NCBI RefSeq assembly: GCF_014695715.1
Contig: NZ_JACJOT010000006.1
Coordinates: 682,001-746,000, forward strand
Direction: 5' to 3'
DNA length: 64,000 nucleotides
Source: Microcoleus sp. FACHB-68
GTDB lineage: Bacteria > Cyanobacteriota > Cyanobacteriia > Cyanobacteriales > Oscillatoriaceae
The position numbers and the translations under genes are program-made. The first letter of the stretch is position 1. Every line of letters starts with the position of its first letter. The notes under the pieces are model-generated. The model searched no databases. It worked only from the letters and a program-made list of their open reading frames with translations, and was not told where the DNA came from. Positions 29,648 through 45,553 of the stretch are shown here, piece after piece.

Positions 29648-30019
29648 ATGGTTCAACGCGGCTCGACAGTTCGCATTCTCCGTAAAGAGTCCTTTTGGTT
29701 CCAAGACACGGGCACGGTCGCTTCTATTGACCAAAGCGGCATCAAGTACTCGGTCATCGTTCGTTTCAACAACCCCAACTATGCCGGCGTCAATACGAAC
29801 AACTTCGCAACCAACGAAGTTGTCGAGGTTGCAGCGCCTAAAGGCAAGGCCAAAGGCGGAGAGGCAACCGGACGCACCAAGCAAACTCCTGTTGATGAAG
29901 CTACCCGCAAGACGGGCATGGGCGTCAAATCAGGAGCGAAGCCAACTGCTAAAGCCGAATCGGGCGAAGGCAGCGCTGTTGTAGAAGGCAGCCCCAATCA
30001 AGGGACTGACTCCCGCTAA
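29648..30019 (+). CDS. psaE: photosystem I reaction centre subunit IV (PsaE) with long C-terminal tail
   Basis: The first 65 residues are canonical Psa[40 protein letters not shown] and [15 protein letters not shown]. PsaE is a stromal SH3-like subunit of photosystem I that helps ferredoxin docking and cyclic electron flow. The loop before GVNTNNF is shorter than in several relatives. PsaE normally ends near residue 70; here about 55 further residues rich in Lys, Gly, Ala and Thr follow the usual AAPKGK end. GGGAG sits about eight bases before the ATG. mutM begins three bases after the stop, so the two genes share a transcript. Confidence 0.96.
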
Positions 30020-30022
30020 GTT

Positions 30023-30961: not shown

Positions 30962-31121
30962 GAGGGGGAGTGTTCAGTGCTGAGTGCTGAGTGGGAACGG
31001 GGAGAAAAGTATAGGAACTGCCGGCCTTTCTTCTCGAATAAGAGTAGACAAAGGTAACTGAGGGCTGAAGCAGCTTAAAATTTTTAAAGAAAGTCATTAA
31101 ACAAAGGCGACAAAGCAACCT

Positions 31122-31355
31122 ATGCCAGAAAAAAAAGAAGCAGCCCTCAAAAAAGGTGACTTGGTTCGCGCCGTCCGCGAAAAATTAGAAAATAGCTTGG
31201 AAGCTCAAGCCAGCGATCCCCGCTTTCCGCCTTATATGTTTGAAACTGACGGTGAAGTTGTAGATATTCGCGGTGAATATGCCTTCGTCAAATTTGGCAT
31301 AGTGCCTACCCCGAACTTTTGGTTGCGCCTCGATCAGTTACAAAAAAGCAAGTAG
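31122..31355 (+). CDS. ndhO: NAD(P)H-quinone oxidoreductase subunit O
   Basis: The 77-residue protein shows the conserved [17 protein letters not shown] and [19 protein letters not shown]. NdhO is a small cyanobacteria- and chloroplast-specific subunit of the NDH-1 peripheral arm; known work places it near the ferredoxin-binding region, where it restrains cyclic electron flow. It lies 53 bases upstream of mdh on the same strand. A short STRR tract separates it from mutM. Confidence 0.95.
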
Positions 31356-31408
31356 TCACCACCGGCTACTCTTAAAGCCTTTGAACCTGTAGCGAGTACC
31401 CCCCCAAG

Positions 31409-32392
31409 ATGACCTCTACCTCGTTCTTTCCACCTACTTGTAGTGGCCCTCGTGTCGCGGTTATTGGTGCCGGCAGAGTTGGCAGCACCCTGGCACAGCG
31501 AGTTGCTGAAAAAAACATTGCTGATGTGGTATTGCTGGATATCGTGGCCGGAATGCCCCAAGGTATCGCCCTCGATCTCATGGAAGCAAGAGGGGTGGAA
31601 CGCCATGACCGGCAAATTACCGGCACAAACGATTATAAAGACACAGCCGGTTCTGACATTGTGGTGATCACTGCCGGCTTGCCGCGCAAACCGGGGATGA
31701 GTCGGGAAGACTTAATCAAAACCAACGCAAAAATCGTTGTAGAAGCAACAAAAAACGCGGTTGCCAACTCTCCCGATGCCATTTTTATTGTCGTCACCAA
31801 CCCGCTAGATGTCATGACTTTCTTAGCTTGGCAGGCGAGTGGGTTGCCGGCACGCCGGGTGATTGGCATGGCAGGGGTACTCGACTCCGCCCGTTTCCAA
31901 ACCTTTATTGCGATGGAATTGGGCCTTTCTGTGCAGGATATCAACGCTTTAGTGCTGGGGGATCATGGCAAGCTGATGGTGCCGGTGCCTCGCTACTGTA
32001 CCGTTGGGGGGATTCCCATCACAGATTTGATGGATGCTGCAACGATTGAACGCCTCGTTGAGCGAACTCGCAATGGCGGGACAGAAATTGTGGAACTGAT
32101 GCAAACCGGCAGCGCTTATTTTGCACCGGCTTCTTCAGTTGCCTTGATGGTGGAAGCGATTTTATTAAATCAGTCGCGCTTGGTAACGGCAGCAGCGTAT
32201 TTGGAAGGCGAGTATGGGTTGCAGGATCTTTTCTTGGGTGTACCCTGCCGGCTGGGTTGTCGTGGGGTGGAAAAAGTGTTGGAACTGCCCTTAACTGAAG
32301 ACGAACAAACTGCTTTTAACGCTTCCGCTGAATCGGTTCGGCAAAATATTGAGCGGGCAAAGGAACTGATTGGTAACACCTCCGAGTCTTAG
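31409..32392 (+). CDS. mdh: malate dehydrogenase (NAD-dependent, LDH-like)
   Basis: The 327-residue protein has the Rossmann motif VAVIGAGRVGS, an Asp at the end of strand two (VVLLDIVAG) expected for NAD preference, and the substrate-binding MSREDLIKTN arginine. VVTNPLDVM and the catalytic His in LGDHGKLMVPVPRY are also present. The Lys-Leu after GDHG replaces the more usual Asp-Thr/Ala, a minor oddity. It oxidises malate to oxaloacetate. Co-directional with ndhO. Confidence 0.94.
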   Translation: MTSTSFFPPTCSGPRVAVIGAGRVGSTLAQRVAEKNIADVVLLDIVAGMPQGIALDLMEARGVERHDRQITGTNDYKDTAGSDIVVITAGLPRKPGMSREDLIKTNAKIVVEATKNAVANSPDAIFIVVTNPLDVMTFLAWQASGLPARRVIGMAGVLDSARFQTFIAMELGLSVQDINALVLGDHGKLMVPVPRYCTVGGIPITDLMDAATIERLVERTRNGGTEIVELMQTGSAYFAPASSVALMVEAILLNQSRLVTAAAYLEGEYGLQDLFLGVPCRLGCRGVEKVLELPLTEDEQTAFNASAESVRQNIERAKELIGNTSES

Positions 32393-33086
32393 GCAAGCAA
32401 AGTAGGGCCGGCACTGCCGGCTTTACCATATTTATTATTTAAAAAAAACTAACTTTTCTTATAGTAGGGTGAAGCCAACAACACGCTAGCTGGCAACCGA
32501 TTGATCTTTTATCCCGTCTTCTCAAGGAGACTTTATGCCAAAAAATTCAAAAGTTTTCTTGAGATGACTTGAATTAATTTGCAAAATTTCTGGCTGCCTT
32601 GTCGGCGTCTTTCCACCTTCGCCCTTTAAGCTTTAGCCCTTTCAAACTCCAGAGAGTGAGGTGCGTATAATTTGTATATTTACTTTGCAATAGACTAGAG
32701 AAGCGGGTGGATATAAATTTAATGTGCTAGATTTTAGTTGATTCTCTGTGTCCCTACTCCCATGCTTTTTGGGCTTGATGATCATATAAATCTATGAAAG
32801 CTGTTGAATGTTTCATCAGCAGTGTGCGGCGGGAAGGGTGTACAGTAAGACTTCTCTAGTAGCCAGCCATCCAAAAATTCTCGGTAAATTCACTGGCACT
32901 TGATGAACAGGCGGCAACTGTATAGCTATCTTGCTGTGCAGATGTCATCAGCAACAAATCGGCAAGGGTGCACATCTATTTCGAGTTGAGGCAAGCGACA
33001 ATCTTTGATAGAACCGGCAGTAAAACCGTTAGATAACGCTGCCGGTTCAGCTAGCAACTTTATTGACCCTCTTAAAGCAATATACT
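32393..33086. other. intergenic stretch before the ATPase island
   Basis: About 690 bases. It starts with a GCCGGC-ACT-GCCGGC hairpin (32407-32421) after mdh, followed by only a short T-run. At 32525-32567 an AAGGAG lies about six bases before an ATG whose frame is only ten codons; that segment can also fold through TCTCAAG/CTTGAGA. The 3' end carries the inverted repeat at 33011-33048. No larger gene is visible. Confidence 0.5.
33011..33048. promoter_or_regulatory. perfect 10-bp inverted repeat upstream of the first island ATPase
   Basis: GAACCGGCAG and CTGCCGGTTC are separated by 18 bases and end 38 bases before the ATPase start codon. The spacing suits either an operator for a dimeric repressor or an RNA hairpin in the leader. 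The half-sites contain the genome's abundant CCGGC motif, so chance is possible. Confidence 0.4.
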
Positions 33087-35006
33087 ATGGCTTGTGATTT
33101 CATCTCTCCGATTAAAGCGCTTAATACTGTCATCGCCACTCACAACCCATTTAATAAACAGCCGGCTGTTAAAGATTCAGAGATTTGGAGCCTGATATTC
33201 CCGGATATTAGTACGCTTAATGATCACGCTTCTGATGCTGTTTTTCAAGCAATTGAGCAAGCGAGAACTGGGCAAAGTAAAATCATATCAATGGCGATTT
33301 CTGGTGAAAGTGGCACGGGAAAAAGTCACCTGATTCATCGCATTCGTCATCGGTTACAAATTCAAGGTAGCGGCTTATTTATTTATGCCAACGCTCATCA
33401 ATTCAATGAAGTTAACCTCATTCGTTATCAATTCCTGCAACTTCTCGTAGATAGCTTAAGACGCCAAGGAAATCAAGGTGTTTTACAGTGTCAGCAACTT
33501 GCAACGGTGATGGTTAACGAAGCTTTAAAAGCGCTGACTCCTATGGCGAAAGCGTTTACTCCTATTGAATTGGTGAGAAAACTAGCGGGGAATTCCCATG
33601 CAAAAAATCAAAACTGGGTGAACCAGTTAACAGAAGCTTTTTTCAAAACGCAACCTGATGTGCCTGAACCGGATATTGTCCGTGCATTAGTGTGGACACT
33701 TTGCAACGCACAAGCGCCTTTTGCAGTGAAATGGTTAGCCGGCAAATCTTTAGCACCTTGGAAAGCAGATGAGTTGGGATTACCAAATCACAGCCGCGAG
33801 GAACGAGAATCCGCCGCTTGGGATACGGTAGTACAAATTCTGAATTTAATGAGTGATTATTATCCGCTGATTATTTGTTTTGATGACTTGGATTCACCCG
33901 AAAGCAGCGAAAACAATTTGAAGCGGGAACGAGTGGTGGCAAGCTTAATTAGGCGTTTGTGGGATAGCCTTCAAATGACTCGCCTCAATCATGGCGTTGT
34001 GATTCTTTCGACAATGACACCGGCAACTTGGACAGAGAAAATTCTGACTTTGCCGGCAGGACTTGCAACTTATTTTTCAGGTAAAAAAGAAGTCATTGAA
34101 TTAAATAGCATTACGGGAGATAAAATTGTCGAGTTAGTCAGTGACTGGTTGCAAATCTTTTATACATCTAAAAACTTAATCCCGCCGACGCCGGTTTATC
34201 CTTTTGATAGTGGTCAGTTACAATCTTTGGGCCGTGAAAAACTAACAGTACGGCAGGTTTTAGAGTGGTGTGAAGAAAATTTTCGCCCTGTTGAACTTGA
34301 TCCTTTGGAGAAAGTGGAACAAGCTTTTGAGCAAGCGATGAGTATTGAACTCGGCGATGAATTGAGTAATAATTTTTTGCTGGCTGAGGCGATTAATTTT
34401 AGCTTTCAAACATTAATCGGTCAGAGTGTGGAAGGCGTAAAAATTGAAGCGGTTGCTGGTGAGGTGAAACCCAAATCAGCCAATCAAGAATATATTCAGT
34501 TTAAAATCACCGGCACGCAAAATGAAAATGCTGTCAAAATAGGCGTGGCTGTGCTTCAGGATACTCGCGCTCAAAGTGTGGCAGCAGGAGTAAAACGTTT
34601 AACGCAATACGGAACTTTCGATCTGAGTTGTGGCTGTTTAGTTCGCGCTTTCAAGCGAGAAATTCCCCCTCACTGGCAGGCTTATAATTATCTCACTCAG
34701 CTTACAGTTGAACTGGGGGGAAAATGGGTAAATTTGAAATTAGAAGACATTAAGCCGTTGATTGCAATTTGGTCACTTCACCGGCATCGGCAAGCTGATC
34801 AGTTTAGTGAGGCAGAAATTTTTGAGTTTATTGCTCAAAGAAGGTTGGCAGCAGATAATCCTTTAATTCGAGGGATTGTGAGAGGAAAAACTCCTCAAAT
34901 TCCCGTTGAAGTTGTTGCTGAAGCGGAAACGAATGAAGCAATAATCACAGAGGAACTTGAGCCGGCAGATCAGCGGGATTTGATGAGAGACTTTACGAAG
35001 TCCTGA
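33087..35006 (+). CDS. P-loop ATPase of the accessory island (first paralogue)
   Basis: From the ATG at 33087 (MACDFISPIKALN) the protein is about 639 residues; a TTG at 33063 is in frame. Walker A is GESGTGKSH near 73-81 and Walker B is LIICFDDLD near 260-269, an AAA+/STAND-like core. The C-terminal third carries VKIGVAVLQDTRAQS...YGTFDLSCGCLVRAF, a beta-alpha unit shared with the ATPase at 36904. The two proteins align along their length (HNPF/PNPF start, QQLATxMV, PYPFD region, LxRxI end), so they are diverged paralogues. I recognise no named family. Its stop codon lies inside a TCTGAGT-type repeat. Its role is inferred from the neighbours: a nuclease and a DNA-binding protein. Confidence 0.8.
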   Translation: MACDFISPIKALNTVIATHNPFNKQPAVKDSEIWSLIFPDISTLNDHASDAVFQAIEQARTGQSKIISMAISGESGTGKSHLIHRIRHRLQIQGSGLFIYANAHQFNEVNLIRYQFLQLLVDSLRRQGNQGVLQCQQLATVMVNEALKALTPMAKAFTPIELVRKLAGNSHAKNQNWVNQLTEAFFKTQPDVPEPDIVRALVWTLCNAQAPFAVKWLAGKSLAPWKADELGLPNHSREERESAAWDTVVQILNLMSDYYPLIICFDDLDSPESSENNLKRERVVASLIRRLWDSLQMTRLNHGVVILSTMTPATWTEKILTLPAGLATYFSGKKEVIELNSITGDKIVELVSDWLQIFYTSKNLIPPTPVYPFDSGQLQSLGREKLTVRQVLEWCEENFRPVELDPLEKVEQAFEQAMSIELGDELSNNFLLAEAINFSFQTLIGQSVEGVKIEAVAGEVKPKSANQEYIQFKITGTQNENAVKIGVAVLQDTRAQSVAAGVKRLTQYGTFDLSCGCLVRAFKREIPPHWQAYNYLTQLTVELGGKWVNLKLEDIKPLIAIWSLHRHRQADQFSEAEIFEFIAQRRLAADNPLIRGIVRGKTPQIPVEVVAEAETNEAIITEELEPADQRDLMRDFTKS

Positions 35007-35147
35007 GTTCTGAGTTCTGAGTGGGAAAGCGGTTTTAAAAAAGTGACGAATAGGAAAGTAAGTTAAAGGAGGAGAAACTAGCAAGAACATGACGATAAAA
35101 TATCGTTTTAACGCTTTCTTAGAAATGAAAACAAATCAGAGGAACCG

Positions 35148-35936
35148 ATGGGAAAAACACTGATTCAAGTGGATGCATTTACTAATAAACGTTTTTCCGG
35201 TAATCCGGCAGCGGTTTGTGTTTTAAATGAACCGGCAGATGAAAAGTGGATGCAGAATGTTGCCGCAGAAATGAATTTGTCAGAAACCGCGTTTTTATAT
35301 CCTCAAGAAGAGGGTTATAATTTGCGCTGGTTTACGCCGGCAGTCGAAGTTGATTTATGTGGACACGCCACACTGGCAAGCGCCCATGTGTTGTGGGAAT
35401 TGCAGTATTTAGATGCAGGAACACAGGCAAAATTTTACACCCGCAGCGGTTTGCTGACAGCGGAACGCCAGGGAAATTGGATTGAGTTGAATTTTCCCAA
35501 AAACTCGCCTGAACCGGCATCCGCACCGGGGCTTTTAGAGCAAGCTTTAGGGGTTGAGTTGAAGTATGTTGGGAAGAATAAATTTGATTATTTGGTTGAG
35601 GTTGATTCTGAAGAAGCGCTGCGGCAAATGCAGCCGGATTTTGTATTATTAAAAACTCTGCCGGTGCGCGGCATCATTGTTACCTGTGTATCCGCATCCC
35701 ATGAGTATGATTTTGTCTCGCGCTTTTTTGCGCCGGCAGCCGGAATTAATGAAGATCCGGTGACAGGTTCTGCACATTGCTGTCTTGCACCTTTTTGGAG
35801 TCAGCGATTACATAAAAATGAGTTTGTGGCTTATCAGGCATCAGCGCGGGGTGGCGTTGTGCGGGTGCGTTTAGCCGGCGAACGCGTCTATTTAGGCGGT
35901 CAAGCAGTAACAGTTTTGCGTGGAGAGTTGACTTAA
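35148..35936 (+). CDS. PhzF-family isomerase-like protein
   Basis: The 262-residue protein opens QVDAFTNKRFSGNPAAVC and has LSETAFLYP with the conserved catalytic-type Glu, DLCGHATLASAHVL, and DPVTGSAHCCLAPFW. These are hallmarks of the PhzF/YddE diaminopimelate-epimerase fold. PhzF itself isomerises a phenazine precursor, but most genomic members have unknown substrates and no phenazine genes are here. It has its own terminator, so it interrupts the island rather than clearly belonging to it. Confidence 0.92.
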   Translation: MGKTLIQVDAFTNKRFSGNPAAVCVLNEPADEKWMQNVAAEMNLSETAFLYPQEEGYNLRWFTPAVEVDLCGHATLASAHVLWELQYLDAGTQAKFYTRSGLLTAERQGNWIELNFPKNSPEPASAPGLLEQALGVELKYVGKNKFDYLVEVDSEEALRQMQPDFVLLKTLPVRGIIVTCVSASHEYDFVSRFFAPAAGINEDPVTGSAHCCLAPFWSQRLHKNEFVAYQASARGGVVRVRLAGERVYLGGQAVTVLRGELT

Positions 35937-35983
35937 TCGCAAGTAGATGATTTTTCCTGAATGAACTTGTAAATTTACAGCTC

Positions 35984-36004
35984 AGCCCGCTTCTGCGGGT
36001 TTTT
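35984..36004 (+). terminator. intrinsic terminator after the PhzF gene
   Basis: CCCGC-TTCT-GCGGG is followed by five T residues, about 50 bases after the stop. It separates the PhzF gene from the three-gene operon that starts at 36197. Confidence 0.88.
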
Positions 36005-36196
36005 CAGTTTATTTAAGTTTGTATATTGTTAATGGCAACAGTTGTCAAGGTTTGAAGAAACAAATTAACATATTTTCAATTTATGTAAAAATTTTATTTC
36101 ACTTTTCCAGGGAACTTGATAGGGAGAGTTAAGAATTTTTGGGTACTATAACTTGGAGAGTGTGAGACGGTATCCACGTTATCAGGAATTTTGAAT

Positions 36197-36886
36197 ATGT
36201 CATCTAAAGCCGGTAAGAACAAGGATTCAAAGGATTTTCAAACCCAAGCAAGAACTCGCCTGCTTCTAACTTTGTGGGATTTGGGAGGATCTGAAGCTGG
36301 CGTTAAAAAAGGTGATTTGACGAAACGCATCGTACGCACAGGTGAGACAAGTCAAGACTATAAAAATATCTTGACTGAATTAGAAGAATCTAAGGCGGTT
36401 GAGATTATCAATAAAAACCGAGTCACGCAGATTTCTTTAACCAATGAAGGCCGGCAAAGCCTAGCTGAAGGATTAAAAAGCGCTGAATTTGAGTTTGACG
36501 GCACTCAAGTTGGCAGCAGGGTTGCTAATGCGTTGCTGAAGTGGATTCGTCAAATGGATGGTGCCGTGAGTGTGCCGGCATCTAAAGGCAAGCCGGCTGC
36601 TGAAATCGGATCTTATGAGAAATTTAAGCCTGAAGTCCTTGCCTTATTTGAGAAGCTAGACAAAGGACACAACTACAGCGGACTGGTTCCCATCTGGCAT
36701 CTGCGCCGTGAACTAGGCGAACAAGTGGGACGCGAAGATTTTAATGAATGGCTGATGAAAATGCAGGGTGAACAATTGTTCTATCTCCAAAGCGGCGAAG
36801 CGCGTGGCGCAACAGATGATCAAAAACGCGATTCTATCACCGACGACGTGAGAGGACTGTTATTTTTCGCCAGTCAACAATCTTAA
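36197..36886 (+). CDS. tandem winged-helix protein, first gene of the ATPase-nuclease operon
   Basis: The 229-residue protein (ATG at 36197; a TTG at 36191 is in frame) looks like two small winged-helix domains joined by a linker. The first, about 15-85, contains LLLTLWDLGGSEAGVKKGDL and ends in a wing (NRVTQISLTNEGRQSL). The second, about 155-225, has LVPIWHLRRELGEQVGRED and FNEWLMKMQGEQLFYL. It probably binds DNA, as a regulator or as the recognition subunit of the complex. The ATPase gene follows after 17 bases. I recognise no family by name. Confidence 0.72.
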   Translation: MSSKAGKNKDSKDFQTQARTRLLLTLWDLGGSEAGVKKGDLTKRIVRTGETSQDYKNILTELEESKAVEIINKNRVTQISLTNEGRQSLAEGLKSAEFEFDGTQVGSRVANALLKWIRQMDGAVSVPASKGKPAAEIGSYEKFKPEVLALFEKLDKGHNYSGLVPIWHLRRELGEQVGREDFNEWLMKMQGEQLFYLQSGEARGATDDQKRDSITDDVRGLLFFASQQS

Positions 36887-36903
36887 GATAGAGGAAGAAA
36901 GCC

Positions 36904-38733
36904 ATGACAGATGCCTACATATTATTTGAAGAAGCGCGGAAGCAAGGCCCAAACCCTTTCAAATTGAAACCAATCGTCAGCGCAGATGAAGTTTGGGGTG
37001 ACGTGGTGACTGATTTGCCTAACCTCAATCAGCACGTTGACCGAACAATATATCAAGCAATTTCAGAGGTTCGCAAAAGGTATTCGGATAAAATTGGAAT
37101 TGCTATCAAGGGCGATCGAGGCACTGGCAAAAGTCATGTAATCCACCGAATCTGGAAAACTATTGAGAGGGAAGGCGGCGCAGTATTTGCCTACATTCCT
37201 CAATTTGTTGATGCCAATCGCATTGACTCCCATGTGCGCTTCTATCTATCACTCAGTTTTAATCACAAAGACGTCGGGGGAATCACACAATGGCAGCAGT
37301 TAGCAACGGCTATGGTTGCCACTCTCAAAGGAACGGAATTTGAAGAAAAATACCAGCCTTATCTTGAAAAATGTGAGAATCCTGAAGAACTAAGGAAATA
37401 CATCCTCAGAACTCATAGTGCAGCCCAAAGGTATGAACTGGTTGATGAACTGGTTGAAGCTATTCTAGAGAATCAATCCGATCTTCATCCTGATTTTTTG
37501 AAAGCAGTTTTGTTTTTACTCTTCAAAACAGCCCCGATTGCTCAGGTTGGCATGGCTTGGATTCAAGGTATCGAGCATCCAGAGACCAGACAAAGAGGGT
37601 TACCAGAGTTTTCGCAGCAAGAGCAAGATGCAAAATCTATTTGGTTTATCCAGCAAATTTGTAAGCTAGCTAGCGTTGCCTTACGACCTGTAGTGATTTG
37701 TTTTGATCAATTAGACCAGCCTAATGTCAGTGCTGATTGTGGAGATAGCGCCGCTCAAATTGTCGCTAGCTGTATTGATAAAATGTACTTTCAATGCAGC
37801 AATGTGATCATCCTTTGCTGCGTGATGAGCGATAGATGGCGGGAAATCGAGCAAATGGGAAGTGGTATCCCAGATCGGGTCGGCCAATGGTCTGAATCTA
37901 CAAAACCACCCACGGCTGAGCAGATGATAGAACTTGTGAAATTGAGGTTGGATTGGTTTTATTCGGAGAAGCATTTAAATCCGGATGCCTACCCTTTTTT
38001 ATATCCTTTCGATGAAAATGAAATAAAAGGAATTGCCAGTAAGGGAGCTGGAGTCCGCTCTCTGATGAAATGGTGTACTGAAAAATTCGATTCAGTGGAA
38101 ATCGGAGGGTCAGTCGCCCCATCTTTGAACCCAGAAGAAAAGAAACGTAAAGAATTCTCGGATGCTTATAACGAATTGTTAGGCCGAACTTCTGCCCCTG
38201 AGCAAAATGATGATCAGTTAGCTGCAATAGTTGCCTGTGCAATGAAAATGTTGCCAGAAGAAGCCATCGAAAATTTAGTCATTCAAAAAGTCGAGTCTAT
38301 TAAAGCAAAGTCTCATGACCTTCATTTGACAATCTCTGGTTCTGATTCCACACAACAAAAAAATGTAAAGATAGGTGTCAGAATTTGTGAAACTCAGACA
38401 GGTAAAACCTTGACTGCGGCGATGAAGAAACTGCTAGACTACGGCAAATATGGGATTACTCGCGGTTGTTTAGTGCGCTCTACACCCATCCCAAGAAGTT
38501 GGAGAAAGGCAAAAGAACTTGAACAGCAACTTGTACAGCAACAAGGGGGTGAGGTTGTTGTTTTGAAGAAAGATGAAATTAATCCTTTAGCAGCGATTCA
38601 TGCAATGTATGAAGAAGCTGAAAACTACGGGTTTACAAAGGAAGAAATTTCAACTTTTGTCAAAGAGCTCAAACTGGCTGCGAATAATCGACTCATCCGC
38701 GAAATTCTGAGCGAGGGTGCGACTGTAACATGA
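36904..38733 (+). CDS. P-loop ATPase of the accessory island (second paralogue)
   Basis: The 609-residue protein has Walker A GDRGTGKSH at 70-78 and Walker B VVICFDQLD at 263-271. Between them lies a helical region with WQQLATAMVATL. After the core comes a helical segment (WCTEKFDSVE, then a charged linker), and a C-terminal domain with VKIGVRICETQTGKTLTAA and YGITRGCLVRSTPIPRSW. The last part is shared with the ATPase at 33087. AGAGGAAG precedes the ATG. The stop overlaps the nuclease start (ATGA), so ATPase and nuclease are made together, as in restriction and other nucleoside-triphosphate-powered nuclease systems. Confidence 0.82.
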   Translation: MTDAYILFEEARKQGPNPFKLKPIVSADEVWGDVVTDLPNLNQHVDRTIYQAISEVRKRYSDKIGIAIKGDRGTGKSHVIHRIWKTIEREGGAVFAYIPQFVDANRIDSHVRFYLSLSFNHKDVGGITQWQQLATAMVATLKGTEFEEKYQPYLEKCENPEELRKYILRTHSAAQRYELVDELVEAILENQSDLHPDFLKAVLFLLFKTAPIAQVGMAWIQGIEHPETRQRGLPEFSQQEQDAKSIWFIQQICKLASVALRPVVICFDQLDQPNVSADCGDSAAQIVASCIDKMYFQCSNVIILCCVMSDRWREIEQMGSGIPDRVGQWSESTKPPTAEQMIELVKLRLDWFYSEKHLNPDAYPFLYPFDENEIKGIASKGAGVRSLMKWCTEKFDSVEIGGSVAPSLNPEEKKRKEFSDAYNELLGRTSAPEQNDDQLAAIVACAMKMLPEEAIENLVIQKVESIKAKSHDLHLTISGSDSTQQKNVKIGVRICETQTGKTLTAAMKKLLDYGKYGITRGCLVRSTPIPRSWRKAKELEQQLVQQQGGEVVVLKKDEINPLAAIHAMYEEAENYGFTKEEISTFVKELKLAANNRLIREILSEGATVT

Positions 38734-40202
38734 CAGTTCAGATTATTAAGGGGATTCAACTGCCGGCTTTTGATGTGGAAATGCTAAGTTTAGGCAAGCT
38801 CATTGCTGTGCCATTCAGACAGCATATCACAGATAATCAGAAATTCTGGCTTTACCCCAGTCAACAACTTCCCGATAATCTCAGTTTAGAACAATATTAT
38901 CAGCCTCAATATTTAACTCAAGCTAGACGTTCATTCGCTGATAATGAGAACTATCCCATCCAGCTTAAAACTTGGGCACGTTGTGAATTTCATTTGCGGA
39001 TTAATCCAGACAAAAAGCATCTTTTAGCTAGCATTGCTCAGTCAACTGTTTGGAATTTAAGTGCTTTAGAACATATCTTTGAACAGTACAAAGTTCTGAA
39101 ACTGTTGATTTTGCGGGTTTATCGTTTGTCTCATCCTTGCACCGTTAATATACCAACAAAATTGAGATATTTCTACGAGCCGAATCAGTCAGAAGATATC
39201 ATCACGATGGGAAGTGAAAGTGATGACCTCATCGTTTCAGAGGCTAGTTTTAACCAGCGAAAAGCGCTTTTATTAGCTGGGGAAGAGTATCTGCATAAAG
39301 ATTTAGAGGATTTGCACTTTCAAGTTGAGCAGATTGCGATTAATAATCCAGCAGCTAAAATACTCAACCAAGAAATCAAAATATTTTTGGGTTGGTGTGA
39401 AGCTTCACCAAAAGCTGCACCTGACCCTGATTTAGCTTGGATTCAAACTATCGCTCAAGTCGGAAATTCTAGCGATGGTCATGCGTTTGAAAAGCTGGTA
39501 CGTCGAGCACTCCTCAAATTAGGCTTCACAGGTTCTATTCTCGAACCAGACTCAACAGGTGGACCCGGAGGCATGGACTTTTATTGTGAAATGCCTTATC
39601 CAATGGTAGGAGAGTGCAAGGCAACGAAAACTGAAACAGTTAGTGATAAAACGCCGGCACAACTTCTAAAAATTGGCATGAATCATCTTGGTAAAGAACA
39701 ATATGAGCGTTCAATCAAGTTGATTGTAGCCGCTGGAGACTTAACTTATTATGCCCTTAGAACAGCGAGGGAAAATTCTATGAATGTCATTAGACCTGAA
39801 ACTTTACAAAGACTCGTTGAACTGGAAGCGCAACATAAAAACTCTGTAAATTTGCTGGAGCTAAAACATTCTTTACAACACGCTCCTTTTGGATTAGCTG
39901 ACGAAAAAGTTAACAATTATCTTGATAAAGTTCAACAAACTATTAATTTGCGTTCGCATATCATCCAGCTCGTGAAAAAACATTTAGAAAACATAAATGA
40001 TGAAAACGTCGGAGTTGAAAGCCTGAAAATAGCTTATATTTACTCTACTCCACCCCCGCCTCAGCCATTAACCTCTCAAGAAATGTATGAAATCCTGATT
40101 GAACTTTCCTCGCCTTTAACCGGCTACTTGGGGCGAATCAAAGGCAGCAATTGGGAAAATGATCGCTTTTACTTCTTGCGAGAAATGCCGGCAGATGAAT
40201 GA
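38730..40202 (+). CDS. PD-(D/E)XK nuclease-like protein coupled to the ATPase
   Basis: The 490-residue protein has a central nuclease core. Glu254 in GHAFEKLVRRALLKLGF, Asp283 in GGPGGMDFYCE and Glu295-Cys-Lys297 in MVGECKATKT match the E...D...ExK order of Mrr-like restriction endonucleases. The N-terminal 230 residues are of unknown fold, perhaps target recognition. The C-terminal 170 are helical with repeated Leu/Lys heptads. The start codon overlaps the ATPase stop by four bases. The core motif is directly seen; the assignment as an active DNA nuclease is inference. Confidence 0.78.
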   Translation: MTVQIIKGIQLPAFDVEMLSLGKLIAVPFRQHITDNQKFWLYPSQQLPDNLSLEQYYQPQYLTQARRSFADNENYPIQLKTWARCEFHLRINPDKKHLLASIAQSTVWNLSALEHIFEQYKVLKLLILRVYRLSHPCTVNIPTKLRYFYEPNQSEDIITMGSESDDLIVSEASFNQRKALLLAGEEYLHKDLEDLHFQVEQIAINNPAAKILNQEIKIFLGWCEASPKAAPDPDLAWIQTIAQVGNSSDGHAFEKLVRRALLKLGFTGSILEPDSTGGPGGMDFYCEMPYPMVGECKATKTETVSDKTPAQLLKIGMNHLGKEQYERSIKLIVAAGDLTYYALRTARENSMNVIRPETLQRLVELEAQHKNSVNLLELKHSLQHAPFGLADEKVNNYLDKVQQTINLRSHIIQLVKKHLENINDENVGVESLKIAYIYSTPPPPQPLTSQEMYEILIELSSPLTGYLGRIKGSNWENDRFYFLREMPADE

Positions 40203-40232
40203 GCCGGCAAGCTTCACCGCAACTACGCCTGC

Positions 40233-41681
40233 TTAAGGATCTTCATCAAATCCAAAATTGACTAATACTAAATGCTCCGGGTTTTCAATTAACTCTTGCG
40301 TTAAAAAGAACCCAGCAATTGTCCAACTTTGGAATTTTCTCGCTTCTTTTCCAATCAGCCGGCCATCTTCACCATCATAATATTCTGGCCAATCTTCGGC
40401 TAATAAACGCTTCCCAACAACGACAAGGTCTTCTTTCAATCTTTTTAAAACATCGTATCTGCCGGTTTTCAAAGCAGCCGCCGCCAACATCCAAGTTAAA
40501 ACCGGCCAACTTCCTCCATTATGATAAGACCAGCGTTTATTCTTAGGATCGCATCCTGTCAAAATCTCCCAATCTCGACCTTCTAAAGCCGGATAACAAA
40601 TTTTTATCGGCATATGGGCAAGCAATTTATCCCATTGCTGATAGATCAGTTCCATAATCTCTTGGGATTGCATCTTCGTTGCCAAAGAACACAGAATCGT
40701 CATCAAATTTGCCAGCGTAAAGAAACGACAATCTAACTGCGAAGGGCCGAGGTTGCCGGCAAAATATCCCCCTTTTTCTTCTAACCACTCACTCAACCAT
40801 TCGTAGGGAATTGAATCTGAATAGAGATTGAACTTATTAATCACTTCTTTCCCATATTGCTCCACCCTAAAGCGATAGATATCATTCAAACTCTTAATAT
40901 CTAACCAATAATCGATCCGAATTCGCTCTTTGAGCGCTTGCAAGCGTAAATGCACTGCCCGCCTCACTTTTTGATTGGCTTCGTTATCGGGCAACAGCTC
41001 AGAAGCTGCTCGCAAAGACGCGTAAAATAAAGCTTGAATTTCTAGCGGATGCCCGTAGATTCCCAGCCGGCGATCAATCATACAGGCACCATCTGGAACA
41101 AGCAGCGTCGGTTCCATATCAAAGCGATCTGAAAAACACAATTCCAGAATTAATCGCACCCCTTCTTGAAAATCCTCTTGATGCGCCAGAAAGTGATTTC
41201 CAACCGCCTTACAATAAGCTCGCAACAAAAGAATCCACCACAAGCTAGAATCAACCGGCGTTACCCTAGCAATCGCCCGATCCCCAAAATCCGGTTCTAA
41301 ATGTTGCTGTCCGTTGTCAACAATTACCTTAAAACTGGCCGGCATCAAAGCTAAACCCGTAAAACTTCTTTGTCTAGCTTGCTGATGTAACTCTAAAGTC
41401 ACTTCCAGAAAATGGCGAACAATTTCTTTGCCGCTGACTGGAATCTCTTTTTCTCCATCATGTTTAGCCGGCAACTCATCATCTTTTACCAAAAAAAGCA
41501 GCGCGACGGGAACAAAATCACGAATAAAAACCTGGTCGTAATTTAGAACTTCTCCGGGAATAGGATGCGCTGCATCAGGATTGCAGACAGCCGGTGTGCC
41601 AATCCAGCGGCCTTCATATTCGATCAGCGACTCAACAAGGATTTTTAACCCGTCTTCTTCCATCTGACTTAATTTCCTCAA
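40233..41681 (-). CDS. neutral/alkaline invertase (glycoside hydrolase family 100)
   Basis: The 482-residue protein has the GH100 landmarks VLNYDQVFIRDFVPVALLFL, LMPASFKVIV, DFGDRAIARVTPVDSSLWWI, VPDGACMIDRRLGIYGHPLE and NGGSWPVLTW. These enzymes split sucrose into glucose and fructose in the cytosol at neutral pH and are thought to have passed from cyanobacteria to plants. The length is typical of cyanobacterial InvA/InvB. It is convergent with the nuclease gene, separated by 30 bases. An in-frame ATG six codons downstream is an alternative start. Confidence 0.94.
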   Translation of the reverse strand: MRKLSQMEEDGLKILVESLIEYEGRWIGTPAVCNPDAAHPIPGEVLNYDQVFIRDFVPVALLFLVKDDELPAKHDGEKEIPVSGKEIVRHFLEVTLELHQQARQRSFTGLALMPASFKVIVDNGQQHLEPDFGDRAIARVTPVDSSLWWILLLRAYCKAVGNHFLAHQEDFQEGVRLILELCFSDRFDMEPTLLVPDGACMIDRRLGIYGHPLEIQALFYASLRAASELLPDNEANQKVRRAVHLRLQALKERIRIDYWLDIKSLNDIYRFRVEQYGKEVINKFNLYSDSIPYEWLSEWLEEKGGYFAGNLGPSQLDCRFFTLANLMTILCSLATKMQSQEIMELIYQQWDKLLAHMPIKICYPALEGRDWEILTGCDPKNKRWSYHNGGSWPVLTWMLAAAALKTGRYDVLKRLKEDLVVVGKRLLAEDWPEYYDGEDGRLIGKEARKFQSWTIAGFFLTQELIENPEHLVLVNFGFDEDP

Positions 41682-42035
41682 CTTCCAATCATTATGTTAG
41701 AGGCGATGCAGCTTGCTTAAATGTTTCTCCACCACCTTATCTGATTGTGCTGATCTCAGTTGCACACTTTCAGGCCGGTGTTGTCGTAGCGTTGACCCTC
41801 GATTCGGGCTTTTGAGAGCGTCGGCACTCAGTTTATACATAACCGCCAACCGGCGCAAGCTTTCTGCACCACATCTCAAATTGCCTTTCTCAGATGCCGG
41901 TGTATTATCGAAGCGTTTATCTGGTGGTACATCAGTGGTAACTGAGTGTCGGTGTCAAAAATCACCAACTCCTTTAACCAAATCTGGGATGATTACGCGC
42001 AATCTTTAACGGTCACACAGACAAAGGAACACTCA
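41682..42035. other. divergent promoter region between invertase and cynS
   Basis: About 350 bases between divergent genes. Open frames here (for instance 41713-42009) lack family resemblance and overlap the cynS leader. An AAAGGAAC segment 10 bases before 42036 supports that start for cynS. I see no clear NtcA site. Confidence 0.4.
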
Positions 42036-42476
42036 ATGGAAATTCCAGACATCACCTCAAAACTTTTAGCTGCAAAAAAAGCCACCGGACTCAGCTTTGC
42101 CGATTTAGAAAAAATTCTCGGACGCGATGAAGTCTGGATCGCCGCCGTTTTCTACCGGCAAGCCAGTGCTTCTGAAGAAGAAGCCAAACAACTCACCGAC
42201 GCACTTGGACTCGATGCCAGTGTCGCTCAATTGCTCACCGAACCCTCTCTCAAAGGGTTAGGGCCGGTTGTTCCTACCGATCCGCTGATTTACCGCTTCT
42301 ACGAAATTATGCAAGTGTACGGAATGCCTCTGAAATCGGTAATTCATGAGAAATTCGGCGACGGCATCATGAGTGCGATTGATTTCACCCTCGACGTAGA
42401 CAAAGAAGAAGACCCCAAGGGCGATCGCGTCAAGATCACGATGTCCGGGAAATTTTTGGCTTATAAGAAGTGGTAG
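42036..42476 (+). CDS. cynS: cyanate hydratase (cyanase)
   Basis: Cyanase converts cyanate and bicarbonate to ammonia and CO2 (via carbamate). Starting at the ATG at 42036 ([15 protein letters not shown]) gives 146 residues, normal for cyanobacteria; the frame is open 30 codons further upstream but that extension is unlikely. The catalytic Arg87, Glu90 and Ser113 (YRFYEIM and SAIDFTL) keep the spacing of E. coli Arg96, Glu99 and Ser122. In other cyanobacteria cynS often sits with a cynABD transporter under nitrogen control; here it is alone. Confidence 0.96.
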
Positions 42477-42746
42477 CCGGTCACAACTACAAGGGGTAGC
42501 ACGTCACAACCAGACGCGGAGGCGATCACAGCCAATAGAAGGGGAACGGGGGATCATGGAAATAGGGGAAAAAAACCCCCTTTTACCCCACCCGATGCCC
42601 CCCAAGCGCCCAAATTTATGTTAAATTTTCGTGACCTTGCGGATTTTGGCTAAAAAACGGTAAAATAAGATACAGAAATAAATTTTTTATTGAATATGAA
42701 CTTCTCTACTCAGCCCAGAAACAATGATTCGTTAAGGAACGCCGAT

Positions 42747-43405: not shown

Positions 43406-45553
43406 TTAACCTTTAACGCAAACAACTTGCTTCAGTGTGGCCACCACTTCAACCAAATCCGATTGCTGCTTCATCACCTGCTCAATCGGCTTGTAAGCGC
43501 CTGGAATTTCATCCAAAACGCCGCCATCTTTGCGGCATTCAACGCCTTGTGTTTGTTTCACCAAATCGTCTACGCTAAATTGGTTTTTCGCCTTATTTCT
43601 AGACATCAAGCGACCGGCACCGTGGGAACAAGAACAGTAACTGTCCATATTTCCTTTGCCTTTAACAATGAATGATTTCGCACCCATTGAACCAGGAATA
43701 ATGCCATAGTCATTCTCTTGCGCCCGCACAGCGCCCTTACGGGTGACATACACTTGTTCCCCGAAATGCACTTCTTTCTCGGCGTAATTGTGGTGGCAAT
43801 TTACCTGCAATAAAGGCTTTGTCTGCTTACCGCCGCCCAGATGCTTTTCCACAATCCGCACAAAGCGACTCATCATCACATCACGATTGTAGCGGGCATA
43901 GTTCTGCGCCCACTGCAAATCTCGCCAGTAAGCGGCAAACTGAGGAGTGCCGGCGACAAAATAGGCCAAATCCGGATCAGGTAACCGAGTATCTGCCAGT
44001 TTTAGCAATTCTTTAGCTGTATCAATGTGGTTTTGCGCCAGCATATTTCCAATGTGACGTGAACCAGAGTGCAGCATCAACCAAACGTGGTTCTCGGTAT
44101 CCAGACAAACCTCAATAAAGTGGTTGCCGCCACCCAGAGAACCCATCTGTTTCATGGCTTTTCCTTCCAAGCGCCGCACCCCCGGATGCAGTTCTTTGAA
44201 ATCACGCCATCCTTGCCAATTGGTAACAGCTTTTTCAACGTTTTTGTTCTCATTAAATCCAACTGGAATTGCTGCTTCAATATCCAGCCGAATTTTCTTG
44301 AGTTTACCTTCCAACTCATCAGCCGTGAATGGTGTCTGGACAGCCATCATGCCGCAGTTGTGAACAAATACGCCGGCTGTTAGGGCAAAGTTGCCATATT
44401 CAGGAACCGTTAAGCAATAAACATCTTGCCGGTCTGGTAAGGAGATAACCTCAACAACTTTGTGGTTGTAGCCATGTTGGTACTTCCTATGATTGTGCAG
44501 TCCAATTGGGCTTTTAACACTGTCTCCGCAAGTTTCACAAGCGTAAAGCCGATTCGCAATTTCTTTGCTCTTGGATTTTCCTTTCTCGCTGATGTTGTAG
44601 TTAATTAAGAACTGCTTGCCTCGTTCCCCATTTCCTGAGACTGACTCTCTGAAATGATCGGGACGATCTTGCATATACTTAATAATATTTTTCGTCCCTC
44701 TTTCAGAATAAAAGCTATGTCCCTCTGCGGTATTAGCTTTGTCAGTGAGCGCTTGCTTTCTTCTGCTCTCAAATTCAGGAGATTGCCAGTATTTGTTTCT
44801 TTCTACCAGTGACCGATGATAGGAAGAATGTTCGCGATTCCCCATGAATTCTAGGTTTTCCGACCTGTTATCAACCGGGTCAAAGTTTTTGTGATGAATC
44901 ACAGTCCGCTGGCCGGCAAATGCAGGAATTTTCCCTAAAAGGCCAGACCGGGCAACAATCCAATGTGCCTTTTGCAATCTGCCAGAATAATTCTGCTGAA
45001 TTAAGGTGTATCCATCCTGATCAGTATCCGTGTAAAAAGGCATTAAAGATGTACCGGCTTTTAAATCGCAAGCCTCAAGGTAGCTGCCATCGCGCAGCAT
45101 AAATTGGTGATCGGGAGTGCATTTAATTTCTTCGCCATTGTCAAGAATGACCTTGACCAAGGGAGCATTTTTACGAGTTAAACGTGCCGTTGCCTTTGCC
45201 GCTACAATGCGACCCGTAGCCGTGCACGAATATACGATAAACTCCTGATTAGCAATAGCCAGTTCTTGAATGGGATAAGATTTCCCATCAGTCACAGGAA
45301 CTAATGTATCTCCAGTAAAACAACCAATATCAACCCCCACAGCGGCGGGTATCAGTGCGTCTTTTGTCGCCACCACTGAACCCACCAAGGCACCTTTACC
45401 CAGGTGAACATCCGGCATCAGTGAGACGTGCTTAAACACAAATGGCAGCGAGGCCACATTTTTAGCCATTTTTTCTTCATCACGGCTTAGTGGGTGGCCG
45501 GCCCAAGACAGCACCGGCTTAGGGGTTGAAAGTTCGAGATTTTCGTGGGGCAT
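43406..45553 (-). CDS. rtcB: RtcB-type RNA ligase precursor interrupted by an intein
   Basis: The 715-residue precursor contains RtcB motifs in both halves. These are MPDVHLGKGALVGSVVAT and AAVGVDIG before the insertion, CGMMAVQTPF just after it, then SLGGGNHFIEV, LMLHSGSRHIG, VNCHHNYAEKE and SHGAGRLMSRNKA. RtcB joins RNA 2',3'-cyclic phosphate or 3'-phosphate ends to 5'-OH ends using GTP and Mn2+, in tRNA or RNA repair. Residues 78-399 are an intein placed exactly before the Mn-binding cysteine of GVDIG/CGM. Removal leaves a ligase of 393 residues. No archease gene is adjacent. Confidence 0.95.
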   Translation of the reverse strand: MPHENLELSTPKPVLSWAGHPLSRDEEKMAKNVASLPFVFKHVSLMPDVHLGKGALVGSVVATKDALIPAAVGVDIGCFTGDTLVPVTDGKSYPIQELAIANQEFIVYSCTATGRIVAAKATARLTRKNAPLVKVILDNGEEIKCTPDHQFMLRDGSYLEACDLKAGTSLMPFYTDTDQDGYTLIQQNYSGRLQKAHWIVARSGLLGKIPAFAGQRTVIHHKNFDPVDNRSENLEFMGNREHSSYHRSLVERNKYWQSPEFESRRKQALTDKANTAEGHSFYSERGTKNIIKYMQDRPDHFRESVSGNGERGKQFLINYNISEKGKSKSKEIANRLYACETCGDSVKSPIGLHNHRKYQHGYNHKVVEVISLPDRQDVYCLTVPEYGNFALTAGVFVHNCGMMAVQTPFTADELEGKLKKIRLDIEAAIPVGFNENKNVEKAVTNWQGWRDFKELHPGVRRLEGKAMKQMGSLGGGNHFIEVCLDTENHVWLMLHSGSRHIGNMLAQNHIDTAKELLKLADTRLPDPDLAYFVAGTPQFAAYWRDLQWAQNYARYNRDVMMSRFVRIVEKHLGGGKQTKPLLQVNCHHNYAEKEVHFGEQVYVTRKGAVRAQENDYGIIPGSMGAKSFIVKGKGNMDSYCSCSHGAGRLMSRNKAKNQFSVDDLVKQTQGVECRKDGGVLDEIPGAYKPIEQVMKQQSDLVEVVATLKQVVCVKG
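44357..45322 (-). mobile_element. intein with HNH homing endonuclease in rtcB
   Basis: The element encodes 322 residues. It begins CFTGDTLVPV (block A, Cys1), has the block B TPDHQFML, and ends GVFVHN followed by Cys+1, as needed for class 1 protein splicing. Between the splicing blocks lies an HNH endonuclease-like segment (VIHHKNFDPVDNRSENLEFM). A C2H2-like finger CETCGDSVKSPIGLHNHRKYQH is nearby, seen as CxxC...HxxxxxH. All splice-junction residues look intact, so splicing should be active. The insertion site corresponds to the archaeal Pyrococcus RtcB intein site as I remember it. Confidence 0.92.

What the first reader, a model, noticed from the sequence alone, without database searches (positions are those of the whole stretch)
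36197..40202. Uncharacterised three-gene ATPase-nuclease operon with a tandem winged-helix protein
A winged-helix protein, a P-loop ATPase and a PD-(D/E)XK nuclease are encoded in one compact operon (17-nt gap, then ATGA overlap) with its own upstream region. The ATPase has Walker A and B, and the nuclease has E254, D283, ExK. Tight coupling of an NTPase and a nuclease to a DNA-binding protein is the signature of restriction or other anti-mobile-element systems. I do not recognise BREX, DISARM, Septu, Gabija, Lamassu, Zorya, Wadjet, Qat or Mza composition. A defence role is inference; a DNA-repair or plasmid-partitioning role is possible.
Basis: partly seen in the sequence, partly recalled or inferred. 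Interest (0 to 1): 0.9.

Follow-up and report, generated by a model that had tools for sequence, protein, structure and literature searches.

The report
Cyanobacterial ATPase-nuclease operon with swapped cassettes
A three-gene cyanobacterial operon (winged-helix-like protein, ATPase, DNA-cutting enzyme) is probably an immune system against invading DNA, and related strains carry different versions of its ATPase block and of its cutting domain, exchanged independently of each other.

Summary
The operon is real: HTH protein 36197-36886, AAA+ ATPase 36904-38733, nuclease 38730-40202. The nuclease is DUF1802 + Mrr-like PD-(D/E)XK core + C-terminal domain; E254, D283, E295 and K297 are kept in 33 of 33 aligned relatives. 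The three genes lie side by side in 30 of 194 sampled cyanobacterial genomes, three of them with a split ATPase frame.

The surprise is mosaicism. Over 29 loci the operon's outer ends follow a species marker, while [HTH C-half + ATPase + DUF1802] and the nuclease core have been exchanged as two independent cassettes. Against a Microcoleus vaginatus MAG the DNA is about 91-92% identical except for about 610 bp of nuclease core.

The HTH protein and ATPase are homologous to those of HTH-ATPase-(PD-DEXK/FtsK) loci, which match the Orc/CDC6 'HerA/FtsK capture' systems predicted by Rakesh et al. 2024 (PMC10853773, section read). Verdict: a new variant of a predicted counter-invader kind; defence is inferred, not shown.

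The parts
36197..36886 (+). HTH (winged-helix-like) protein, 229 aa. N-half (res. 14-115, about 36236-36541) follows the species marker; C-half (res. 116-229, about 36542-36883) belongs to the exchanged chassis.
36904..38733 (+). AAA+ ATPase, 609 aa, clade A. AF2 model: AAA+ part to about residue 310, helical region, beta-beta-beta-alpha-beta domain of restriction-endonuclease-like topology at res. 458-553 (about 38275-38562), C-terminal helices.
38730..40202 (+). Nuclease, 490 aa: DUF1802 (res. 11-141) + linker + Mrr-like PD-(D/E)XK core (res. about 236-365) + helical and winged-helix-like C-terminus (res. about 390-482).
38760..39152 (+). DUF1802 domain of the nuclease (part of the exchanged chassis)
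   Evidence: (Pfam E 1.5e-15)
39435..39824 (+). Nuclease catalytic core, type T1 (E254, D283, E295, K297)
39468..40077 (+). Segment not aligned by blastn to the otherwise 91-92% identical M. vaginatus locus (L004), which carries a T2 core here; identity already falls to 68-87% over 39177-39476 and is 72% over 40110-40169
33063..35006 (+). Context, not part of the operon: paralogous solo ATPase (34% identity to the operon ATPase), grouped with three other solo ATPases (L105, L110, L111)
31409..32392 (+). Context: malate dehydrogenase gene (named from its sequence), a landmark beside the operon in 10 of 32 loci; pgi is the landmark on the other side in 12 of 32

Best explanation
A resident counter-invader (restriction-like) complex. 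The winged-helix-like protein binds DNA or an invader-derived target and docks through its C-half on an Orc/Cdc6-like AAA+ ATPase; the ATPase assembles on DNA and, through its restriction-endonuclease-like C-terminal domain and the DUF1802 domain, recruits and licenses the Mrr-like PD-(D/E)XK nuclease, which cuts the invader (or the host, in an abortive response). Shown here: operon structure, conserved catalytic residues, co-occurrence, co-variation of HTH C-half + ATPase + DUF1802 as one block, independent exchange of the nuclease core, homology of HTH protein and ATPase to those of HTH-ATPase-FtsK/nuclease loci. Inferred: physical complex, target, cleavage, defence. Not tested by any experiment.
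For: Side by side in 30 of 194 genomes; nuclease residues kept in 33 of 33. HTH C-half, ATPase and DUF1802 identities co-vary (Spearman 0.91 and 0.82 with the ATPase) and share the A/B split once each, whereas the nuclease core (0.06 with the ATPase) does not: as expected of one interacting chassis carrying an exchangeable effector. In-place exchange of these cassettes between near relatives (30, 53) is the kind of diversification conflict systems show (effector displacement, passage of PMC7159879). Profile homology to ATPase and HTH protein of loci with PD-DEXK + FtsK motor, with or without 3'-5' exonuclease, an architecture predicted to be anti-invader (PMC10853773, 79). Decay in place in some genomes (95; split ATPase frames, 23) fits a dispensable function. 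Defence-like neighbours in some loci: GmrSD and RelA/SpoT-like beside L096, PIN/RHH beside L083, SNF2-helicase gene beside the lone HTH gene of L114.
Against: No experiment. No match on PLSDB plasmids (ATPase, nuclease), phages (ATPase only) or IMG/VR contigs (ATPase, nuclease): the locus is chromosomal, and 16 of 32 loci lie beside mdh and/or pgi, unlike the 'mobile neighbourhoods' of the published systems. PADLOC and NCBIfam give nothing over threshold for the operon. The defence-like neighbours were picked by eye; enrichment was not tested. Foldseek found no match with E of 0.001 or better for either model, and the nuclease model is poor (mean pLDDT 48). Most clade-A ATPases have Q in place of the usual Walker B E (101), so ATP hydrolysis is uncertain. 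DUF1802 also exists as a separate conserved protein in many cyanobacteria.
Confidence: 0.6

Rival explanations
1. A DNA-repair or chromosome-maintenance module: the ATPase loads the nuclease at damaged or stalled DNA.
For: Chromosomal, beside mdh/pgi in 16 of 32 loci, HTH N-half and nuclease C-end follow the species marker (37, 105), so part of it looks long resident. Orc/Cdc6-like AAA+ plus PD-DEXK nuclease would also suit repair.
Against: Adjacent trio in only 30 of 194 genomes, lost or decayed within families that have it (G024 scrap; split ATPase frames in 3 of 30). Repair enzymes do not usually exchange their catalytic core and ATPase between unlike alleles in near relatives (inference).
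Confidence: 0.15
2. A self-targeting or inter-strain conflict system (addiction, kin discrimination, abortive infection) in which the nuclease acts on the host genome when the ATPase switch is tripped.
For: Exchange of the nuclease core while the chassis stays resembles warhead exchange of polymorphic toxins (general knowledge). The Walker B E-to-Q change in 7 of 8 clade-A rows would suit an ATP-bound switch (inference).
Against: No immunity gene and no secretion signal was looked for or seen in the operon. Both core types keep the same catalytic residues (101), so exchange does not change the chemistry.
Confidence: 0.15
3. A domesticated or parasitic mobile-element apparatus (Orc/Cdc6-family ATPase as in Tn7/Mu-like elements, nuclease and DNA-binding protein).
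For: The Orc/Cdc6 family includes transposition ATPases (stated in PMC10853773).
Against: No integrase or transposase within the operon; half of the loci (16 of 32) share the mdh/pgi site; no plasmid or viral match in the collections searched. Element ends were not searched for.
Confidence: 0.05
4. The mosaic is neutral: ordinary gene conversion between old divergent alleles, without selection for diversity.
For: No test of selection was made; cassette exchange needs only homologous recombination at conserved ends. The exchanges are between few types (A/B, T1/T2).
Against: Repeated: at least 7 A/B changes and 9 T1/T2 changes on the species-marker tree, out of at most 8 and 14 possible (59; no shuffled-label control was run). 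Divergent alleles (about 30% ATPase identity) are kept in near relatives (gpmI 97% identical), which suggests balancing or diversifying selection (inference).
Confidence: 0.3

Closest known systems
Orc/CDC6 ATPase operon with ASCH-fused REase and DndG-like triple-wHTH protein (Rakesh, Aravind & Krishnan 2024, PMC10853773, one sentence in section 22; read in full)
   Same: Three components of matching kind: multi-wHTH-like protein, Orc/Cdc6-like ATPase, REase with an N-terminal extra domain; no HerA/FtsK.
   Different: ASCH identity of DUF1802 not shown. The published loci are called mobile; these are chromosomal and often beside mdh/pgi. The paper's figure and supplement were not available, so identity of the two cannot be decided. 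Cassette exchange is not mentioned in the passages read.
Orc/CDC6-coupled HerA/FtsK capture systems (same paper)
   Same: HTH protein and ATPase homologous (E 8.7e-32; E 5.3e-13) to those of cyanobacterial loci whose third gene has PD-DEXK + FtsK-alpha + FtsK, in L117 and L120 with a 3'-5' exonuclease, in L116 without.
   Different: The window operon has no HerA/FtsK motor; its effector is DUF1802-Mrr.
BREX and BREX-related systems (BrxC, DUF499, DUF6079 Orc/Cdc6 ATPases; PMC12839542, passages)
   Same: Orc/Cdc6-type ATPase as a scaffold with wHTH proteins.
   Different: No methyltransferase and no PglZ beside the operon among the neighbouring ORFs read; BrxC_BrxD only E 0.14 to the paralogue and not listed for the operon ATPase.
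Mrr-type (type IV) restriction
   Same: Mrr_cat matched in 21 of 33 nuclease members at E up to 1, best 1.1e-4.
   Different: Window member below the Pfam cut-off (16.7 of 21 bits); fused to DUF1802 and tied to an ATPase and an HTH protein.
Type I R-M specificity exchange and polymorphic toxins (recalled, not searched)
   Same: Exchange of a functional module inside a conserved operon or gene.
   Different: Here the exchanged units are the ATPase chassis and the nuclease core rather than a DNA-recognition domain or a secreted warhead.

Membership tests
Orc/CDC6 + REase + multi-wHTH counter-invader operons (Rakesh et al. 2024) | Orc/CDC6-family AAA+ ATPase | tested here: inconclusive
   Pfam AAA_16 E 1.2e-4, below cut-off; profile v. 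PDB best hit Cdc6 1fnn, E 0.028; Foldseek ORC/Cdc6 chains at E 0.029-0.1, none at 0.001 or better, among other unrelated folds.
Orc/CDC6 + REase + multi-wHTH counter-invader operons (Rakesh et al. 2024) | Inactive REase domain between ATPase core and C-terminal wHTH | tested here: inconclusive
   AF2 model (mean pLDDT 70) has beta-beta-beta-alpha-beta at 458-553; Foldseek top hits EcoT38I, MspJI (E 5.6e-3), AspBHI (0.035), but tyrosine phosphatases also appear from E 0.053 and the aligned range is not given. A C-terminal wHTH was not established.
Orc/CDC6 + REase + multi-wHTH counter-invader operons (Rakesh et al. 2024) | Active REase | tested here: met
   E-D-ExK kept in 33 of 33; alpha-beta-beta-alpha-beta order at 250-334 in the model, pLDDT about 55-79; Mrr_cat in 21 of 33; Foldseek top MspJI E 0.012, HindIII 0.061. 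By sequence; no activity shown.
Orc/CDC6 + REase + multi-wHTH counter-invader operons (Rakesh et al. 2024) | REase fused to a modified-DNA-binding ASCH domain | tested here: inconclusive
   DUF1802 in 33 of 33; ASCH not in the 25 of 33 Pfam families shown. hhalign DUF1802 v. the few cyanobacterial ASCH proteins: E 0.024-0.73 in all runs. Similarity seen only by eye.
Orc/CDC6 + REase + multi-wHTH counter-invader operons (Rakesh et al. 2024) | DndG-like triple wHTH protein | tested here: inconclusive
   Weak winged-helix profile matches; homologous to the HTH protein of clade-C loci (E 5.3e-13). Number of wHTH units and DndG kinship not tested.
Orc/CDC6 + REase + multi-wHTH counter-invader operons (Rakesh et al. 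2024) | Mobile gene neighbourhood | tested here: not met
   16 of 32 loci beside mdh and/or pgi; no plasmid, phage or viral-contig match. This is a setting, not a component.
HerA/FtsK capture systems | HerA/FtsK motor | tested here: not met
   None among the three window genes. Present in the related clade-C loci L116, L117, L120.
Systems in PADLOC-DB 2.0.0 (2023) | Component profiles | tested here: not met
   Best for the operon Avs2 E 2.4e-4 (17 bits, 94 of 1375 profile positions) to the ATPase; CARF3 0.039 to the HTH protein; none to the nuclease. Later DefenseFinder releases not testable here.
BREX | Methyltransferase and PglZ with BrxC | tested here: not met
   Neighbouring ORFs read (names by eye, few by Pfam); no such gene recognised. 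BrxC_BrxD not listed for the operon ATPase.

The most novel reading that the evidence does not exclude
A resident, multi-allelic immune locus of cyanobacteria in which the recognition chassis (HTH C-half + ATPase + DUF1802) and the nuclease core are two cassettes exchanged independently and in place by recombination through conserved operon ends, so that near relatives carry unlike combinations: an immune locus diversified by allele shuffling at a conserved site rather than by whole-system gain and loss on islands.
Probability: 0.4. Interest if true: 0.8.

Novelty: new variant of a known kind. Interest (0 to 1): 0.55.

Why it matters
If it is a defence system, it would be an instance where the ATPase chassis and the nuclease warhead of an immune operon are shuffled separately at a conserved chromosomal site, which makes a standing question testable: which part of an ATPase-nuclease defence complex carries specificity. 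Natural chimeras (A-T1 3, A-T2 5, B-T1 11, B-T2 10 of 29 loci) already exist for comparison. It also gives a function to look for in DUF1802, for which one paper, on another subject and seen only as a listing, was found in the library.

Tried and rejected
Rejected: BREX, Dnd, Avs and other PADLOC systems. Rejected: plasmid- or phage-borne. Rejected: that the second ATPase at 33063-35006 is the partner or remnant of a B-type operon; it groups with three solo ATPases, SH-aLRT 99.9, and its own function is unknown.

Led nowhere: profile searches of PDB with all three alignments (no hit better than E 0.028). DUF1802 as ASCH (few ASCH proteins in cyanobacteria, no significant profile match). Viral-contig scans found no relatives to deepen the structure alignments, so both AF2 jobs had 4-6 rows and the nuclease N-terminus (1-232) is below pLDDT 50. 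Paper on phage resistance in Nostoc (PMC12507012, passages): cell-surface genes only, nothing on this locus.

Errors of mine: one search failed (wrong file name) and was repeated. One search read the species marker wrongly for minus-strand loci; its gpmI figures are void and one search replaces them. Searches included the ambiguous row L115; without it are the ones used.

Rows dropped before counts: of the 32 three-gene loci, the module analyses used 29; L086, L100 and L113 (split ATPase) were left out, as were partial loci L108, L114, L118 and L084 (same record as L006). A1 holds the 29 plus four solo ATPases; A2 holds 33 nucleases and A3 33 HTH proteins, including some of those loci. A/B was assigned from the ATPase and T1/T2 by a motif in the core; the AU tests of A were made on modules other than the ATPase, those of T1 on modules other than the core; T1 was not AU-tested on the ATPase tree. 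All trees were 'quick' trees.

Not done: shuffled-label control for the change counts; test of selection; enrichment of defence genes near the loci; search beyond cyanobacteria other than one pattern-based scan of genome contigs (three loci, all in cyanobacterial records).
Full report
OBSERVATION. Walker A and B are present, the latter with CFDQLD. The nuclease has E254, D283 and E295-C-K297. Pfam finds DUF1802 (E 1.5e-15) in the nuclease N-terminus and a sub-threshold Mrr_cat in its core. All 33 aligned nucleases match DUF1802, 21 of 33 match Mrr_cat at E up to 1, and the four catalytic residues are kept in 33 of 33. The AF2 model of the nuclease is poor overall (mean pLDDT 48.4), but its core at 235-445 (mostly 52-79) shows helix 250-263, strands 282-286 and 292-297, helix 307-320 and strand 329-334, the order of a PD-(D/E)XK fold, and a winged-helix-like end. 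Foldseek ranks MspJI (E 0.012) and HindIII (0.061) first; no hit reaches 0.001.

DISTRIBUTION. In 194 cyanobacterial genomes drawn evenly from the phylum, the ATPase gives hits in 35 (E up to 1e-10), the nuclease in 35 and the HTH protein in 38 (E up to 1e-5). Reading the stretches around them, the three genes are side by side in 30 of 194: 27 with whole frames and three (G118, G039, G103) with a split ATPase. G155 and G153 have parts at contig ends. G129 has the HTH gene alone, G066 a solo ATPase alone. Two named relatives outside the sample, L004 (Microcoleus vaginatus MAG) and L005 (Cylindrospermum sp. NIES-4074), were fetched; L006 is the same record as sampled G060. The ATPase and nuclease have no match in PLSDB plasmids, the ATPase none in phages, and neither in IMG/VR contigs by the pattern scan. 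Spread beyond cyanobacteria was not tested except by the close-relative scan.

PLACE. In 16 of 32 three-gene loci malate dehydrogenase and/or glucose-6-phosphate isomerase lies beside the operon (mdh upstream in 10, pgi downstream in 12, both in 6; first seen). In G024, which lacks the operon, pgi and mdh are neighbours with a 36-codon scrap of the nuclease C-terminus, holding a stop, between them: loss in place. G087 has a scrap beside mdh while its operon with all three genes is on another contig.

TWO INDEPENDENT CASSETTES. The ATPases fall in two clades, A (window type, 8 of 29) and B (21 of 29); the nuclease cores in two types, T1 (14) and T2 (15). All four combinations occur: A-T1 3, A-T2 5, B-T1 11, B-T2 10. 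With phosphoglycerate mutase (gpmI) as a species marker, Spearman correlations of pairwise identities over 29 loci are: gpmI with HTH N-half 0.81, nuclease C-end 0.62, linker 0.53, mid part 0.50, DUF1802 0.35, HTH C-half 0.25, core 0.24, ATPase 0.18; ATPase with HTH C-half 0.91, DUF1802 0.82, linker 0.71, HTH N-half 0.24, C-end 0.14, mid part 0.11, core 0.06. The linker thus follows both, and the mid part only partly follows the species. On trees, A/B needs 1 change on ATPase, HTH C-half and DUF1802 but 7 on the core, the HTH N-half and gpmI; T1/T2 needs 1 on the core but 9 on each of the other five. AU tests reject clade A as one group on core (p 3e-9), HTH N-half (1e-71) and gpmI (6e-51), and T1 on HTH N-half (1e-60), HTH C-half (4e-58), DUF1802 (3e-4) and gpmI (7e-5). 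One gene is a thin species proxy, rows are related, and no shuffled-label control was run for the change counts.

The same is seen in DNA. Window against L004: blastn blocks of 90.6-92.3% identity cover 30001-42604 except 32809-32900 and 39468-40077; the latter is the nuclease core, T1 here and T2 there, about 50% identical when forced. The edge is not perfectly sharp: 68-87% over 39177-39476, 72% over 40110-40169. L083 against L096 (gpmI 97%): upstream mostly 87-100%, HTH nt 1-390 71-92%, then about 40-60% from there through DUF1802 (A against B), then the core at 81-97%. L092 against L102 (gpmI 96%): HTH to nt 480 87-94%, ATPase and DUF1802 about 41-70%, core 90-97%, downstream flank 90-98%. 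Seven pairs were profiled; the others (such as L088/L097, L096/L101) are less clean, being more diverged or sharing a sub-clade.

WHAT THE ATPASE IS. Its AF2 model (mean pLDDT 69.9, six rows) has an AAA+ part, a helical region, a beta-beta-beta-alpha-beta domain at 458-553 and C-terminal helices. Foldseek's best hits are restriction enzymes (EcoT38I and MspJI at 5.6e-3, AspBHI at 0.035) and, lower, ORC/Cdc6 chains (from 0.029), none at 0.001 or better, with unrelated folds such as tyrosine phosphatases from 0.053; aligned ranges are not given, so placing the restriction-enzyme match in the C-terminal domain is my inference. The profile's best PDB sequence hit is a Cdc6 (1fnn, E 0.028). Walker B has Q for E in 7 of 8 clade-A rows.

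RELATED LOCI. A second group ('clade C') has an HTH protein of about 270-300 aa and an ATPase of about 660-710 aa; its ATPase occurs in 25 of 194 genomes, the window's genome included (G000:C4, two ATPases in tandem). Without the ambiguous row L115 the profiles match ours at E 8.7e-32 (ATPase) and 5.3e-13 (HTH). The third gene in L117 and L120 is 3'-5' exonuclease + PD-DEXK + FtsK-alpha + FtsK, in L116 the same without the exonuclease; L182, L185, L191 and L192 encode homologues of the L120 gene; L180 and L183 have a second ATPase instead; none was seen in L184 and L119. This is the composition that Rakesh et al. 2024 give for Orc/CDC6-coupled HerA/FtsK capture systems (PMC10853773; passages, abstract and outline, section 22 read in full). 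The same section mentions, in one sentence, HerA-free operons of an Orc/Cdc6 ATPase, an ASCH-fused REase and a triple-wHTH protein. I think the window operon is of that kind, with DUF1802 in the place of ASCH. The sequence pattern looks alike by eye, but profile comparison gives E 0.024-0.73. DUF1802 itself matches in 48 of 188 genomes, and 35 genomes have it as a separate frame of 188-279 aa.

MECHANISM. Best reading: the HTH protein and ATPase recognise and assemble on invading DNA, and the DUF1802 domain couples the nuclease core to them; the block that co-varies is the interacting chassis, and the core is the exchangeable cutter. The co-variation and exchange are shown; complex, target and cutting are inferred. 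Defence is supported by the family resemblance, the patchy presence, the decay in place and the diversification; passages of PMC7159879 list effector displacement in a conserved context as a mark of conflict systems. It is weakened by the lack of mobile context and of any experiment.

LITERATURE. 'DUF1802' is in one paper of the library, on soil gene networks, seen only as a listing. Searches showed no paper on this operon or its mosaicism in their listings; the library holds only open-licence PMC papers, and only PMC12507012, PMC12839542, PMC7159879 and PMC10853773 were opened, none of them in whole.

VERDICT. A real, conserved and rapidly reshuffled operon; a new variant of a predicted counter-invader kind.

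Noticed in passing
33063-35006 (+): Solo ATPase, 34% identical to the operon ATPase, forming a clade (SH-aLRT 99.9) with solo ATPases of G002, G066 and G118 that have no HTH or nuclease gene beside them. Its partner is unknown.
   Followed up: partly
L180 6098-11358 (G000:C4): The window's own genome also has a clade-C HTH gene followed by two tandem clade-C ATPases without an FtsK-nuclease gene.
   Followed up: partly
L190 7262-9994; L189 7425-10095: A protein of 101-102 aa that is only the HTH N-half sits beside genes for proteins of 267 and 433 aa in two genomes; no informative Pfam match for the L190 set. The N-half seems to be used in another gene cluster.
   Followed up: partly
L081 5302-7536; also L089, L113, L186: Pairs of small genes (about 105 and 120 aa, the second weakly retropepsin-like, PF13650 E 0.001-0.002) repeated up to three times downstream of the operon in Nostocales.
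   Followed up: partly
L096 9988-12164; L083 6635-7320; L114 10583-13876: Defence-like neighbours: GmrSD_N and RelA_SpoT genes beside one operon, a PIN/RHH pair beside another, and an SNF2-helicase gene (with a sub-threshold PLD match) 140 nt after a lone HTH gene. Picked by eye.
   Followed up: partly
43406-45553 (-): RtcB-like gene that appears, by eye, to carry an intein (long insert with HNH-like and splicing-like motifs).
   Followed up: no
54266-60202 (-): Haemagglutinin/CHAT-like protein of 1978 aa with a very long PTPEP-type repeat (by eye).
   Followed up: no
G000:C13:468255-468773 and 34 other genomes of 188: DUF1802 as a separate conserved protein of about 190-280 aa; function unknown.
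   Followed up: partly
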